Shown here one piece after another: positions 3,820 through 43,901 of a stretch of 64,000 nucleotides of DNA (within the stretch, counting starts at the first letter, position 1; every line of letters begins with the position of its first letter). Location: NCBI GenBank assembly GCA_036504055.1, contig DASXVU010000031.1, forward strand, positions 1 through 64,000, given 5' to 3'. The DNA comes from Methanomassiliicoccales archaeon. GTDB lineage: Archaea; Thermoplasmatota; Thermoplasmata; Methanomassiliicoccales; UBA472. Below the pieces are notes generated by a model. The model searched no databases. It had not been told where the DNA came from and saw nothing but the letters and a program-made list of their open reading frames with translations. The translations under genes and the position numbers were made by a program.

Positions 3820-3890
3820 GGAGGGTTGGTCAGGGACCGCCGGGCCTCTACAGCTATGGCAGCCGGGTTCGATTCCCGGGCCCTTCGCCA
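3820..3890 (+). tRNA. pylT: tRNA-Pyl (CUA anticodon)
   Basis: Amber suppressor tRNA. Acceptor GGAGGGT pairs with GCCCTTC, discriminator G, and CCA is encoded. One base (T3827) separates acceptor and D-stem, a tRNA(Pyl) signature. The D-arm is GGTC-AGG-GACC with a 3-nt loop. The anticodon loop CTCTACA carries CTA at 3848-3850. The anticodon stem is seven pairs with a bulged A (A3856), like the broken stem of Methanomassiliicoccales tRNA(Pyl). The T-arm is CCGGG-TTCGATT-CCCGG. It is the first gene of the pylTSBCD block; an AT-rich candidate TATA element lies near 3782-3793. Confidence 0.93.
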
Positions 3891-35444: not shown

Positions 35445-35723
35445 TCATAATTTATATTCTCTAACTAATGTTAATCCGTCAAAATCCACAAGACACTTAG
35501 ACGTGTCTCCATACGTTCGGATGGCAAACCCTTGTTCATTATTTGTACTCCAAGCTTGAATGATCCCACCCTCTTTGATCGAGGACATGCATTTCACCCA
35601 TAAACGTTCCCTGACCTCTGCAGATACTTTACCGAGGAAGACTCCGACCTTCGGTTCGATCATCCATCTGGACAACTCTCCACGAAGCGAACTGGGCGTC
35701 TTTTCAAGAATCATGATCAGCAT
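35445..35723 (-). CDS. cas2: Cas2e adaptation protein
   Basis: 92 residues. Partner of Cas1 in spacer integration. Type I-E Cas2 pattern: MLIMILEKTPSSLRGELSRW, GVFLGKVSAEVRERLW and the late segment with GFAIRTYGDTSK. ATG 35723 is chosen because GAGGATGGGAA precedes it and family proteins begin M-x-hydrophobic-x-L. It overlaps the end of cas1 by 20 bases. TGA stop. Confidence 0.92.
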   Translation of the reverse strand: MLIMILEKTPSSLRGELSRWMIEPKVGVFLGKVSAEVRERLWVKCMSSIKEGGIIQAWSTNNEQGFAIRTYGDTSKCLVDFDGLTLVREYKL

Positions 35724-36645
35724 TTCCCATCCTCTCGGACAGTTCCTCTTCATCCTCATGCCATAAAGGAGCGGGTCTTGCAGCATCATCGCTGAAATTG
35801 TCGTTTTCCTTAGACACAGTTACTTCCCCCATAAGTTCGTTGATGTCATCGACGATCCTTGCTAGGATGCGATGCTCCTTGAATGAATTTCGCAATTCCA
35901 ATCGTATCCTCCTCTCAAGATCTTCGCTGCCTACGGCCGTTGCCATGAACGCAACAGGAATTGTCGTTTCCGTTTTATAGAGATCGGCGATATCATAGAC
36001 GAACGAAAGTTGCTTGCCGTTGTGGATGAAACCTAACGCAGGGGAATACCCAGCAGATACGATGGCCGCATGGCATATCCCATATAGGCAGGAATTGGCC
36101 GACGATAGGGCCCTGTTTATTGGATCAGTGGACCCCCACGCCTCTCTTTTATAACTTCTTCCAGCCCAAACAACTCCGTATTTCTTGCTGGCTTGAGCAT
36201 ATGCGGTCCGCACTCGGACCCCTTCCATTCCCCGGAGCTCTTCGAGACTGCGATCTTCAATCCCTTCGAGTCCCGGAAATCTCATCGTGTACATCTTCCT
36301 GACGACATTCAGACGTTGCACTGGATCCGAGACCAAAGCGGCCTGTCTGATCAATTTATAGGATGAGCGGGTCTCGCCCATCCCCTGAGCATAGAACCTT
36401 ACTCCCTCTTCCCCTGTCCATATCAAAAGACACCCGTTCTGCGCGATGGTTTTGGTCGCCTCATGTGAAATAGCCGCCCCCGGACCGAGCATGATGACGG
36501 CAAGGGAGGCACAAGGAATTTTCGTTACGCCTTCCTTATCATAACTGGCTATTGACTTTTCGTCCTGTTCGACCCTGCATCTCTCCAGGTATAGATAGCT
36601 AAGGCCATCGCGGAATTTTGGGAGCTCATGGAGATCTTGAGACAT
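35704..36645 (-). CDS. cas1: Cas1e integrase
   Basis: 313 residues. The integrase of spacer acquisition. Metal-binding residues fall at the same numbers as in E. coli Cas1: E141 (GMEG), H208 (GFIHNG), D218 and D221 (VYDIAD), so the enzyme looks active. ATG 36645 follows GGGAAGGTAAGC, which can serve as ribosome site. It is in the same frame as cas6e, five codons after the cas6e TAG. TGA stop. Confidence 0.95.
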   Translation of the reverse strand: MSQDLHELPKFRDGLSYLYLERCRVEQDEKSIASYDKEGVTKIPCASLAVIMLGPGAAISHEATKTIAQNGCLLIWTGEEGVRFYAQGMGETRSSYKLIRQAALVSDPVQRLNVVRKMYTMRFPGLEGIEDRSLEELRGMEGVRVRTAYAQASKKYGVVWAGRSYKREAWGSTDPINRALSSANSCLYGICHAAIVSAGYSPALGFIHNGKQLSFVYDIADLYKTETTIPVAFMATAVGSEDLERRIRLELRNSFKEHRILARIVDDINELMGEVTVSKENDNFSDDAARPAPLWHEDEEELSERMGNADHDS

Positions 36646-36657
36646 GCTTACCTTCCC

Positions 36658-37266
36658 CTACCTTATCGGGGCAATGGATAGGAGGCCGAATCCGAATCCC
36701 TTTCCGCTGCCTATGCCCGATTCGAGCGTCGACTTGAAATTCAATGGTTCCTCAATTCGGAGAATCCCGTCAAACAGCGCTGCACCGATTGTAGTTTTGG
36801 CCTTCCCCTCACCCGGTGACATCGGTTCTAACTTAGACCGGATGCTGGTCAATTGGATGACGGAAAATCCTCCAGTCGTCGCCTTTCGGTCTAGCCAGTA
36901 CACTTGATCTTCATAGTCAAAAAGAAATATCCTTTTCATTTCCCTCTTGACTGTCGGATTCGCCCTGAGCCTGAACCTTAGGACCTGCCCAGCCACGACC
37001 TCCGGATCAAAAGATTTCTGCAAGGGCGGCGAGGACAGGTAGCCTCCGGCCAGAGGAAGGCTGCCCCATTTCGCCTCAACGGTGGATTGGACGATGATGA
37101 TCGGCCTCTCCAGTTCACCCTCCAACCGGAACAATACCCTTCCAGGACCTCCAGCCTCGGCCGATGGAAACGCCCTCATGATCGTTCGGTGCAGTTCGTA
37201 TGGATCCGCCAGGTCTCTCCTTACTGACCGGTTCATTGGATTCACCTCAAGCTTTGACAGATACAT
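36658..37266 (-). CDS. cas6e: Cas6e crRNA endonuclease
   Basis: 202 residues. Cuts the array transcript and stays with the crRNA in Cascade. The start MYLSKLEVNPMNRSVRRDL and the catalytic-His region YELHRTIMRAFP are typical, as is the glycine-rich end GIGSGKGFGFGLLSI. ATG 37266 follows GGTGAGG; it overlaps cas5e by 20 bases. The stop is TAG (36658-36660), at the natural family length, but the frame continues without another stop through cas1. Confidence 0.94.
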   Translation of the reverse strand: MYLSKLEVNPMNRSVRRDLADPYELHRTIMRAFPSAEAGGPGRVLFRLEGELERPIIIVQSTVEAKWGSLPLAGGYLSSPPLQKSFDPEVVAGQVLRFRLRANPTVKREMKRIFLFDYEDQVYWLDRKATTGGFSVIQLTSIRSKLEPMSPGEGKAKTTIGAALFDGILRIEEPLNFKSTLESGIGSGKGFGFGLLSIAPIR

Positions 37267-39633: not shown

Positions 39634-41187
39634 TTATTCCCCTCCATACTTGTCGCTTATTTCCTTGATCCCGTACAAAAAACGACCCTGGGCCTTGACT
39701 ATGGCTTTCAACCCTGCTGGGTTCTCCGGCAGTTCACCATAGAGTCGGTTGAACTGTTTCCTCGCTTCTTTAGCCACAACATCCTGGGCCCAGCCTTTGA
39801 GGGCCAGGACGCGCCCCTCGTCCGTATCAATGCCGATGGTCGGGGAGACCAGATCGAAGATGAACCTCCTGAATGCCCCTTCGAGCGTTGCCCAATACTG
39901 GCGCGGAATACTGGACGCCCTAACCCGTTCCGCCAATTCATCCCTCTCCGGTTTTCCATCTGTTGGGTCAATCCACCATCTGAACGCCTCTCTTACTGAA
40001 ACGTTCAGGATGATTCCTCCCTTCTCAGCAATATCAAGCGCCTGCCCTAAGGCATCCACAATCAATTCATCCTGCAAATATCGGGCGGGAATGGGTAGCA
40101 CCTCGTGTCTCCAGAGATCCACTTTGGCCGGCTTATTCGAAACTAATCCGAAGGCTTCGATACTGAAGACCCTGGAACTGTCGACGATAGAATCGTTTAC
40201 AAAGCCGGAGACCCATTTCATTGCATACGGGGGCACCGTGTCTCCATTGCTGCGAGGCAACCGGAGCAGTACCAAACTATTCCTCCAGAATGCCCTATCT
40301 GGGTCGAAGGAAATTGGAACGAAACCCCGATCATTTACCTTCCTGAAAGCCTTGGACGGGTCTATTATCGCGGCGTTCTTGGGGAACATACGACCGACGC
40401 CAAGCTTTACTCGGGAGACGTACCGGTTGCCCATCACCTCTTCTGGAACTAGACGAATAGCCCTACTCTGCCAGGTCAGGTAATCCAGGTAGCCATGTGG
40501 TTCTCTCCTGACCTCCAGGACAGCCTCATCTGAGGCCTCCCAAGATGGCTTATCATCTGTGCAAGGAAGTGGGGCGTTCTTTCCGTCGTATCGGATCAGA
40601 TTGAGAGTGAGCGTCTCGAATACGGAGGCCCCTTTCAGGAAGATGGCCGCACCACTTACCAAAGGCGCATGTTCGAAATTTGTGTCTGAGCCGCTTAGGC
40701 CACTAAGTGAATAGGCCTGCGCGGCAATGAGATAGCGTGCAGCCTCGGCCGCTGGGACTATTGGAGGAGAGTCGTCCCACCGATGATCGAACCATGCCGG
40801 GTTATTGCCCGATGACATCTCGTGGACGATCTTGGCGATCGTGACCGGCAATTTTCCGTCCACCTCTTTGGTCTGGTAAAAGGGTCTGGCCTCGTCAAAG
40901 ATGTCAAACGAACCATGCCATTTATCGATATAGGCATCTAAGCATCGTATGTCCCATTGACCATCCGTCCATATCTTGCCCCAATCAGACTCTTCCACTG
41001 GACCAAGGTTGCGATGAAGGATGGCAAGGAGCAGCCTATGGATGGCGCACCGGACCAGGGGGGATTCGTCAATGATCTCTACTATATCAGATGCTCCAAC
41101 CACCAATTGCCGTATGCTCAACTCATCCATCTTGCCATCTTTCATCAGGCATGGAATCCATCTCTCATCCAACAGATTGAACTTCAT
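39634..41187 (-). CDS. cas8e: Cas8e large subunit (Cse1)
   Basis: 517 residues. Recognises the PAM and recruits Cas3. Family start FNLLDERWIPCLMKDGK; later ARPFYQTKEVDGKLPVTIAKI and the L1-loop-like region with NNPAWFDHRWDD. The C-terminal four-helix bundle includes FRRFIFDLVSPT. Its ATG overlaps the cas3 stop (ATGA) and its TAA is two bases before the cas11 start. Confidence 0.93.
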   Translation of the reverse strand: MKFNLLDERWIPCLMKDGKMDELSIRQLVVGASDIVEIIDESPLVRCAIHRLLLAILHRNLGPVEESDWGKIWTDGQWDIRCLDAYIDKWHGSFDIFDEARPFYQTKEVDGKLPVTIAKIVHEMSSGNNPAWFDHRWDDSPPIVPAAEAARYLIAAQAYSLSGLSGSDTNFEHAPLVSGAAIFLKGASVFETLTLNLIRYDGKNAPLPCTDDKPSWEASDEAVLEVRREPHGYLDYLTWQSRAIRLVPEEVMGNRYVSRVKLGVGRMFPKNAAIIDPSKAFRKVNDRGFVPISFDPDRAFWRNSLVLLRLPRSNGDTVPPYAMKWVSGFVNDSIVDSSRVFSIEAFGLVSNKPAKVDLWRHEVLPIPARYLQDELIVDALGQALDIAEKGGIILNVSVREAFRWWIDPTDGKPERDELAERVRASSIPRQYWATLEGAFRRFIFDLVSPTIGIDTDEGRVLALKGWAQDVVAKEARKQFNRLYGELPENPAGLKAIVKAQGRFLYGIKEISDKYGGE

Positions 41188-43901
41188 TCTGTCCTCTCCT
41201 CGTTCGCAAGTACGATTCCCAGCTCCTTGGAAAGCCTGATAGGATGGCCTTCGATCTCGGATCTGAACACATTCCCGCCTTCAGATAGGGGAAAAGCAAC
41301 TATCCTATGACCTCTCAAAGGTGTTCGGTCAAGGGCGATCTCAAGGTCGCTCTTCGGCCGCTTTCGGAAACCGAAAACAATACTCGGCTTGTCGATTCGA
41401 ACGGTGCGGTTGAGCAGATTCCTCTGCATTTCCTGCGAGCCCAACTCCTTTTGTGTGATCGGCACGGTTCCCAGCTCATCGAGGTACGTTTGTGATCCTA
41501 TTGCATACAGGCAGACCAGACTTACCCCAGGACGTATCAGCCTGGTCCTCGCCTGCAGAGACACATGCATTTCATCATCCTCTTCTTCCAAGTAACGAGG
41601 GATGTCTCTCCAGACCTTTCCCTCGCGAGGCGAAGGTATGACCGCTGAGCGGGCCATATATTCTTCGGAACTGAGCGCAGTTTCACGTTCTCTGTTCAAC
41701 TCTTCCAACCTCTCCACCCAAGGCAGAGGTGAGCCGTTGGGCAGGGTAGGTGGATAGACCGCCTCGACAAGTTCTTCAATATCCGTGGGGGTGGTTATCT
41801 TGTCCCTCCCCAGAAGATGGGCATAGGTTGACAGGAGCGTCGATTCCCAGTAAACGAATGAAGAATCTCCAAACGTAGGATTGCCCTCCTTCAGCTGGGG
41901 TTCGACGATGTATAACCTAGGACAGGTTAACAAAAGAGGCCTACGATGACCTGGATGCCTGTGAAGTCTCCCAATTCTCTGCAGAAGGAGGTCCACAGGT
42001 GCGATGTCCGAGACTATTAGGTCGAAATCGAGGTCAAGGCTTTGTTCAATGACCTGTGTGGCAATAAGCAGGTGTTTTTTCGATGGGTCCCTTTCCTTTT
42101 TTCCAAACGAGGATATGCATGTGTTCTCTTTTGCAAGTCGATCCTCCAATGGAAAGCGGGCATGGAACAGGTCCACTTCTATCCCAGCTTTACGAAGCGG
42201 GCCTTCGATCGCTTGATACATGTCTTGTGCCCTGGAAATGGTACTGCAGATTAGTGCCGCATGCCCTCCATCCCTTAGTAGGTCCGTAAAGAGGGCGGTT
42301 AAGGCATCGTGGTTGTCCTCGATCCAATCAAGGAGAACTTCCACCTTTCTGCCTGTTGATTCAATGGTCTGTGACCCTACTCCACTCTTCGAGGCCCACG
42401 AGATTCTAGGATAGGCACCGACCGAGGGCAACGGCTCTCCACCTGAATAGGCATAAATTAGCTCGGCGCTTCTCTTTCTTGGAAGTGTAGCTGACAGCAC
42501 GACGACTGAACACCCCAATGCAGATAACCATGACAATAGTATTTCTAAGAGCGTGGAGGTGTAAAGGTCATACGCATGGACCTCGTCGACCACCACGGTT
42601 TTCCCAGCGAGACCGAACAAACGAACGAAGAAGTGCTTTGAGGGAAGGACAGCCATCAGAGCCTGATCCACGGTGCCTACACCATAGGACGATAGTATGG
42701 CCCTTTTCTTTTGAGAAGAAAACCATTGTACCGCAACCACGGTTTGTGAATCATCGGAAACGCTATTCTGTGTTCTTAACTGGGCATACTCGGGAGATAG
42801 GGCGGCGTACCCGTGGAGGAGATGCAGGTTGACATAACCATCGAACGAAGCATGTTCAAGGTACAATCTGATCCGATGGAACATCTGATTAGCTGTTGCT
42901 TGGGTAGGCAGAGCGACGTAGGCGCCCCGATTATCGAGGGTTCGCCTCCAATAGTTCTCCAGGAACATGGCCGCTTCTGTCTTACCTTGACCCATTGGCC
43001 CCTCGATCAACACCAGAGAGGGGCCTTCTAACTTGGTCACCATGTTCACTGTACTGCTTTGCAGTGGAAATAAATCCTGGAAACCAAAAACCTCACCGAA
43101 GGTCTCTGGTTGGCCGGTCTGGTCACCGATACCCCACATAAGCTTCCGGACGGCGCCCTCAGCTTTGCTAGAGGTCGCGCACTAATATTCTCTAAATGAA
43201 GAGGCCACACGTTCATATGGGAAATTCTCGATGTCGGAACCTATCCAATCAGAAACTGAGATTAGACCTGCTATAAACACAAAAAACGAATTTGCATTGT
43301 TGACAGATAGTCTGGGCCAGATGGATATATCTAATCCAATAGTCTCAATTACACATTTTATCATCTCCTTTCTGAGCGCAGCCCACTCTACCCCACCTAG
43401 GACTGATGGACTTACGCTCATGACATCAATTGATGAAGGAATTGTACCATGATGAGACCCGGCGGCAAAAGAGATCAATTGAAGAAATCCAGGGTCGACC
43501 TTGCCTTCATTGAGAACCGTCTTTAGCTCATTGAGCATTATTTTGGATGTAACTGTCCCATGTGGGACCTTTTCATGCCCAAGAGACAGCTGACTGAAAT
43601 GAATACCCTGTTTTGCTATTGAAATCTTCAGATCGGGCACCATTGCCTGGAATTGAGGATGCGCTTTTCCAATGTCATGGCATGCAGCGATGAAAGTTAT
43701 CCATTTCTCACAGTCCAAAATGGATATTGACATCGATTCTGCTAGCCACTTCTTCGTCCTGTTACTGAGCACAGTACGGAACAACTCTTGCGCTACAGAA
43801 CCGACATCAAGCATGTGATAGGTCAACGGATGGTAACTGGTCGGAGGTCCAACCGTAGCCTTGGCCCAAAGAGCCAACTGCCTTTGATCACTTATCCCCA
43901 C
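41184..43901 (-). CDS. cas3: Cas3 nuclease-helicase with one in-frame amber codon
   Basis: The HD part (codons 1-239) has all the nuclease residues (H24/H29, H75-D76, H150-H151, D218). TAG follows at codon 240 (43182-43184), then 14 codons reading CATSSKAEGAVRKL, then the helicase from M255 (ATG 43139) with Walker A GPMGQGKT (about 301-308) and DEVH (439-442). The frame is unbroken, total 905 residues, the usual type I-E Cas3 length. The linker after the amber fits the helix that joins the two halves in one-piece Cas3, and no good ribosome site precedes ATG 43139. So this is one gene with an amber, read as pyrrolysine or split into two products. GTG start at 43901, 28 bases from the TATA centre. 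Confidence 0.9.

What the first reader, a model, noticed from the sequence alone, without database searches (positions are those of the whole stretch)
41184..43901. Cas3 carries a single in-frame amber between nuclease and helicase in a pyrrolysine-encoding genome
Seen: the HD frame ends SFREY-TAG (43182-43184) and the same frame goes on for 14 codons (CATSSKAEGAVRKL) into the helicase, giving 905 residues in all. All HD and helicase motifs are intact. The 14 codons fit the helix joining the domains in one-piece type I-E Cas3, where an aromatic residue after Tyr is common, so TGG to TAG by one change is plausible. ATG 43139 lacks a clear ribosome site. Known: this genome encodes tRNA(Pyl) and PylS, and reads amber in mtbB. 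Inference: full-length Cas3 may need pyrrolysine, tying interference to Pyl supply or methylamine growth, with truncated HD-only Cas3 otherwise.
Basis: partly seen in the sequence, partly recalled or inferred. Interest (0 to 1): 0.93.

Follow-up and report, generated by a model that had tools for sequence, protein, structure and literature searches.

The report
Stop codon inside a methanogen's Cas3
In a methanogen that can read the stop codon UAG as the rare amino acid pyrrolysine, the single gene for the CRISPR DNA-shredding enzyme Cas3 has one UAG between its two halves; it is probably read through part of the time, a case of something already reported once, and nothing yet shows that it is a deliberate switch.

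Summary
A single in-frame TAG (43184-43182) splits an otherwise intact type I-E cas3 (43901-41184, minus strand), the only cas3 in the genome, beside a complete cas operon and 49 identical CRISPR repeats. The complete pyrrolysine kit (tRNA-Pyl CUA, pylS, B, C, D) and an amber-containing mtbB lie in the same window. All 81 relatives compared are one-piece, and the 14 codons after the TAG align to their conserved connecting helix, so the ancestor was one-piece. The helicase ATG has no convincing ribosome site. Across the order, internal stops in Cas3 are always TAG (9 in 6 genes; no TAA or TGA), and two genera share one amber column. Most likely the amber is decoded partly as pyrrolysine, without a special signal. 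Against efficient or regulated decoding: this genome ends 16-18% of genes with TAG, shows no backup stops, has no pyrrolysine-insertion element or structure at this site, and the TAG at the cas6e/cas1e junction also lies in frame. Recent inactivation cannot be excluded. Amber-containing Cas3 was already reported in strain ISO4-H5 (2016) and amber-containing Cas1 in Ca. M. alvus (2014). The proposed link between interference and methylamine growth is untested.

The parts
41184..43901 (-). cas3 (type I-E), 905 codons if the amber is read; HD domain, connecting helix, two RecA domains, C-terminal domain
43182..43184 (-). in-frame amber codon TAG, codon 240, fifth residue of the connecting helix (236-253)
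43182..43901 (-). HD (Cas3'') part, 239 aa, what is made if the amber terminates; GTG start
   Evidence: TIGR01596 77 bits
43140..43181 (-). 14 codons between amber and ATG, homologous to the connecting helix of one-piece Cas3 (A247, A250, L254 conserved)
41184..43139 (-). helicase (Cas3') part, 651 aa if initiated at ATG 43139; no convincing Shine-Dalgarno
39634..41187 (-). cse1/cas8e, overlaps the cas3 stop by 4 nt
   Evidence: TIGR02547
39089..39631 (-). cse2/cas11
   Evidence: TIGR02548
37902..39092 (-). cas7e
   Evidence: TIGR01869
37247..37927 (-). cas5e
   Evidence: TIGR01868
36658..37278 (-). cas6e, ends in TAG which is in frame with cas1e (4 codons GKVS between)
35704..36645 (-). cas1e
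   Evidence: TIGR03638
35445..35789 (-). cas2e
   Evidence: TIGR01873
32437..35393 (.). CRISPR array: 49 identical 29-nt repeats, 48 distinct spacers, period 61
3820..3890 (+). tRNA-Pyl, anticodon CUA, bulged anticodon stem; missed by ARAGORN and the Rfam tRNA model
   Evidence: shape as in PMC3941956
3893..4756 (+). pylS (start codon not determined)
   Evidence: TIGR02367, 291 bits
4767..5852 (+). pylB
   Evidence: TIGR03910
5849..7018 (+). pylC
   Evidence: TIGR03909
6883..7875 (+). pylD
   Evidence: TIGR03911
606..1991 (+). mtbB, dimethylamine methyltransferase with in-frame TAG (positive control), with the Rfam PYLIS_2 element at 1665-1764

Best explanation
An ordinary one-piece type I-E Cas3 acquired one amber codon by point mutation in the helix that joins the nuclease and helicase halves, in a cell that carries amber-reading Pyl-tRNA. 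When the pyrrolysine genes are on, a fraction of ribosomes insert pyrrolysine at codon 240 and make full-length Cas3; the rest stop and release a 239-residue HD fragment. No special signal directs this; it is competition between release factor and Pyl-tRNA, and the residue itself is probably neutral, as at the other Cas3 ambers of this order. Shown here: the amber, one-piece ancestry, the intact gene and operon, the pyrrolysine kit, and recurrence of amber only in Cas3 of the order. Inferred: decoding at this site, its efficiency, and function of the product.
For: Intact frame and motifs on both sides. 81 one-piece relatives; the linker is ungapped in all but two and conserved positions are kept. 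The codon lies in helix 236-253 of a confident model (pLDDT 88.9; best solved matches 4q2c/4q2d and T. fusca Cas3). Complete Pyl kit and amber in mtbB and mtmB of the same genome. In about 1.17 Mb of this genome, the TAGs found breaking a conserved protein family are in mtmB, mtbB and cas3; of the 28 TAA/TGA candidates scanned, the one that breaks a family is in a transposase. In the order's 31 Cas3 genes, 9 internal stops in 6 genes are all TAG. G117 and G076 share an amber column at 44% protein identity. ATG 43139 has no better ribosome site than many internal ATGs, while cse1, cse2, cas7e and cas5e have strong ones. Precedent: an amber put into a reporter gene in Methanosarcina acetivorans was read as Pyl at 20-30% without a special context (PMC2933860).
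Against: TAG is a normal terminator here: 16-18% of genes, against 2-3% in the G036 and G125 samples. Genes ending in TAG have no excess of backup stops. No PYLIS element and no unusual RNA structure (z -1.27) at the cas3 amber. The linker scores in the lowest 4% of relatives, though 3 of 63 segments of the protein are equally low. Borrel 2014 found no pyrrolysine protein besides methyltransferases in the relative M. luminyensis. No closely related cas3 was found (all about 41% identity or less), so persistence of the amber cannot be tested.
Confidence: 0.55

Rival explanations
1. Recent inactivation: the amber works as a stop, full-length Cas3 is not made in useful amounts and interference is off, with too little time for further decay.
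For: TAG terminates 16-18% of genes in this genome; the linker is at the low end of the family; cas3 is broken in another member of the order (G042, HD start and remainder apart); cas genes are often lost (general knowledge).
Against: Gene, operon and array otherwise intact; no second stop or frameshift in 2.7 kb; the stop is the one codon this cell can read; stops that break conserved families look very rare in the sampled 44% of the genome.
Confidence: 0.25
2. Functional split: HD (Cas3'') and helicase (Cas3') are made as two proteins, the second from ATG 43139 by reinitiation or internal initiation.
For: Both halves are complete domains; the ATG lies 42 nt after the stop; split Cas3 exists in other subtypes (general knowledge); in-frame TAG junctions between real genes occur here, including cas6e/cas1e in the same operon.
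Against: The next cas junctions overlap or nearly touch, with strong ribosome sites at cse1, cse2, cas7e and cas5e; this one has a 42-nt gap and a ribosome site reached by a quarter of internal ATGs; the gap encodes the conserved helix; none of 81 relatives is split.
Confidence: 0.12
3. Assembly or sequencing error: the real codon 240 is a sense codon.
For: Draft assembly of 49 contigs, single base, no closely related sequence to compare.
Against: No other anomaly in the gene; single-base errors in finished assemblies are rare (general knowledge); recurrence of ambers in Cas3 of the order.
Confidence: 0.08

Closest known systems
Cas3 of methanogenic archaeon ISO4-H5 (AR505_1089), reported with an in-frame amber (PMC5011839); here G036, locus L008
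   Same: Cas3 of the same order, pyrrolysine cassette, in-frame TAG; one of its two ambers also lies in the HD-helicase linker (column about 249)
   Different: Different family of the order, different codon, two ambers instead of one, genome with few TAG terminators (about 3%)
Pyl-containing Cas1 predicted in Candidatus Methanomethylophilus alvus (PMC4153887)
   Same: A cas gene with an in-frame amber in a pyrrolysine-decoding methanogen of the same order
   Different: Adaptation protein, 'PreFran' subtype system, genome with 1.6% TAG terminators
tRNA-His guanylyltransferase of Methanosarcina with neutral pyrrolysine (Heinemann 2009; title seen in the reference lists, paper not held)
   Same: Amber in a protein that does not need pyrrolysine; neutral-appearance model
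   Different: Tested by experiment there (own knowledge); not here
Thermobaculum terrenum Cas3 (4q2c) and Thermobifida fusca Cas3 (4qqw)
   Same: One-piece Cas3 with the same fold (TM 0.83-0.85)
   Different: A sense codon at the amber column

Membership tests
type I-E Cas3 (one-piece) | HD nuclease motif and metal ligands | tested here: met
   H29, H75, D76, H150, H151, D218 as in relatives; Cas3_HD 141 bits
type I-E Cas3 (one-piece) | SF2 helicase core and Cas3 C-terminal domain | tested here: met
   TIGR01587 212 bits, Pfam DEAD and Cas3-like_C_2; fold match to 4q2c
type I-E Cas3 (one-piece) | type I-E operon and array | tested here: met
   cse1, cse2, cas7e, cas5e, cas6e, cas1e, cas2e over cut-off; 49 repeats
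type I-E Cas3 (one-piece) | single uninterrupted reading frame under the standard code | tested here: not met
   TAG at codon 240
pyrrolysine-containing protein | host encodes tRNA-Pyl(CUA), PylS and PylBCD | tested here: met
pyrrolysine-containing protein | homology continues in frame across the TAG | tested here: met
pyrrolysine-containing protein | TAG avoided as terminator in the host (seen in efficient archaeal decoders, not a strict requirement) | tested here: not met
   16-18% TAG
pyrrolysine-containing protein | PYLIS element after the TAG (not essential in the literature) | tested here: not met
   found in mtbB only
pyrrolysine-containing protein | amber conserved in close relatives | not testable with these tools
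   no relative above about 41% identity was found
pyrrolysine-containing protein | pyrrolysine seen in the protein | not testable with these tools
   needs mass spectrometry
separate Cas3'' and Cas3' | own start and ribosome site for the helicase | tested here: inconclusive
   ATG 43139 exists; site energy -6.1, reached by 25% of internal ATGs
separate Cas3'' and Cas3' | relatives with the same split | tested here: not met
   none of 81

The most novel reading that the evidence does not exclude
The amber makes CRISPR interference conditional: full-length Cas3 appears only when the pyrrolysine cassette is expressed, i.e. during methylamine growth, while an HD fragment is made otherwise, so immunity is coupled to carbon source through the genetic code.
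Probability: 0.12. Interest if true: 0.85.

Novelty: new member of a known kind. Interest (0 to 1): 0.45.

Why it matters
If decoded, an immune enzyme would depend on the twenty-second amino acid in a genome where UAG is still a common stop, a regime in which no pyrrolysine protein beyond the methyltransferases was predicted in the relative M. luminyensis. Across the order, Cas3 is a repeated target of amber codons, at variable positions, so it is a convenient natural reporter of how freely these archaea read UAG. It also warns that automatic annotation will split such genes and call them broken.

Tried and rejected
A search for close relatives of the gene by peptide patterns found none; an alignment query gave 80 loci at about 41% identity or less. 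The hexamer-based scan for interrupted genes did not itself pick up mtbB and cas3 and so is not sensitive for genes of unusual composition; it gave five TAG candidates besides the two window genes: mtmB (known), three pairs of separate genes (thiM/thiE, lactamase/Sua5, two methyltransferases) and one unassigned; of 34 TAA/TGA candidates, 28 were scanned with Pfam. RNA structure after the amber is not significant. ARAGORN found no other amber-reading tRNA in the sample, but it also misses tRNA-Pyl. No spacer matches the sampled genome, so self-targeting gives no information on activity. The TGG-to-TAG origin is not favoured; TTG (Leu) or TAC/TAT (Tyr) fit the column at least as well. Clustering of ambers in the linker (2 of 9 codons) is not significant by a rough estimate.

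Full report
Observation. On the minus strand of the window the frame 43901-41184 encodes an HD domain (239 aa), one TAG (43184-43182), 14 further codons, ATG 43139 and a 651-aa helicase; read through it is 905 residues with no other stop. NCBIfam and Pfam assign both halves to Cas3. The rest of the operon is a complete type I-E set (cse1, cse2, cas7e, cas5e, cas6e, cas1e, cas2e), next to an array of 49 identical repeats and 48 distinct spacers. It is the only strong Cas3 hit in the genome.

Pyrrolysine kit. A tRNA that folds as a cloverleaf with anticodon CUA and an interrupted anticodon stem lies at 3820-3890, the shape described for this order (PMC3941956). PylS, PylB, PylC and PylD follow. 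mtbB at 606-1991 has the expected in-frame TAG and the Rfam PYLIS_2 element, and mtmB elsewhere in the genome has its TAG too. So amber is read in at least these genes (inference from families with proven pyrrolysine).

Ancestry of the gene. Eighty loci, mostly bacterial, plus one from the same family of archaea, encode one-piece relatives at about 41% identity or less. The connecting segment aligns without gaps in all but two of 81. Positions A247, A250, L254 and W256 are strongly conserved and kept in the window protein. The 14-residue stretch scores 3.5 bits against the family profile; stop-free 14-mers of the window average -23 and only 0.055% reach it. The score is low for a family member (lowest 4%), but three of 63 segments of the protein are equally low. 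In an AlphaFold2 model (pLDDT 88.9) the amber is the fifth residue of helix 236-253 that joins the two halves; the best solved matches are one-piece Cas3 of T. terrenum and T. fusca. The amber column is variable and mostly hydrophobic: Ala 25, Leu 16, Phe 11, Val 5, Tyr 4, Trp 3.

Split gene? ATG 43139 is preceded by a site of -6.1 kcal/mol against the 16S tail, reached by a quarter of internal ATGs; cse1, cse2, cas7e and cas5e have -9.1 to -10.7 (cas1e -7.7; cas6e -3.3 is weak too). Most junctions in the operon overlap or nearly touch; this one would leave a 42-nt gap that encodes the conserved helix. None of 81 relatives is split.

The order. In 147 genomes of the order, 31 Cas3 genes could be read. 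Six carry internal stops, nine in all, every one TAG: this genome 1, G117 2, G076 2, G125 1, G036 2, G090 1 (the G090 case was judged by position only). If the three stops were equally likely, nine of nine would have a chance of 5e-5; without this genome, eight of eight, 1.5e-4. G117 and G076, from different genera and 44% identical, share one amber column. The codons sit at variable positions, as expected for neutral appearance. G036 has the length of ISO4-H5 (1,937,883 against 1,937,882) and its cas3 lies beside the array position given in that paper, whose authors list cas3 among 46 amber-containing genes (PMC5011839).

This genome is different from the efficient decoders. TAG ends 16-18% of called genes (497 to 908 genes, simple gene caller), against 3% in G036 and 2% in G125 (G076 gave 18% on only 51 genes and is uncertain). 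Published values are 1.6% for Ca. M. alvus and 11.3% for M. luminyensis, where no pyrrolysine protein besides methyltransferases was predicted (PMC4153887). TAG-terminated genes here have no excess of backup stops. At the cas6e end in the same operon, TAG is followed in frame by GKVS and cas1e, so general readthrough would also fuse Cas6e to Cas1e. No PYLIS and no unusual structure follow the cas3 amber.

Interruption background. In about 1.17 Mb of this genome, candidates for in-frame interrupted genes were scanned with Pfam: the TAGs that break a family are in mtmB, mtbB and cas3; of the 28 TAA and TGA candidates scanned only a transposase is broken. The scan is not sensitive for genes of unusual composition.

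Mechanism. Literature: in M. acetivorans an amber introduced into uidA gave mostly termination but 20-30% full-length product with pyrrolysine, and PYLIS is not essential (PMC2933860). The simplest model is therefore a point mutation to amber, tolerated because Pyl-tRNA suppresses it partly when its genes are on. Whether enough Cas3 is made for interference, and whether this varies with substrate, is unknown. Recent inactivation remains the main rival.

Verdict. Real, well-formed observation; interpretation plausible in its first half and untested in its regulatory half; a further member of a known kind (amber-containing Cas proteins in this order), of interest because it occurs in a genome that still uses TAG as a common stop.

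Noticed in passing
window 36645-36660 (minus strand): cas6e ends in TAG and cas1e starts in the same frame after four codons (GKVS); reading the amber would give a Cas6e-Cas1e fusion. A useful internal control for any readthrough experiment.
   Followed up: partly
L020 (G117) and L021 (G076): Two Cas3 proteins of different genera, 44% identical, share an in-frame TAG in the same alignment column of the HD domain (window position about 90), which suggests a kept amber sense codon or convergence.
   Followed up: partly
window 3820-3890: tRNA-Pyl is missed by ARAGORN and by the Rfam tRNA model because of its unusual shape.
   Followed up: yes
whole genome sample (G000, about 1.17 Mb): TAG ends 16-18% of genes although a complete pyrrolysine cassette is present, above the 11.3% published for M. 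luminyensis, with no excess of backup stops.
   Followed up: yes
L213 16505-17938, L221 7316-8656: Pairs of separate genes joined in frame by a TAG terminator (thiM/thiE; metallo-beta-lactamase/Sua5), which would be fused by readthrough.
   Followed up: partly
L007 and L017 (G042): cas3 in this genome is broken: the first part of the HD domain lies on its own ORF upstream of the remainder, without an amber at the break.
   Followed up: partly
L070 15831-16805: Transposase gene interrupted by TGA, the only non-TAG interruption of a conserved family found among the candidates scanned.
   Followed up: no
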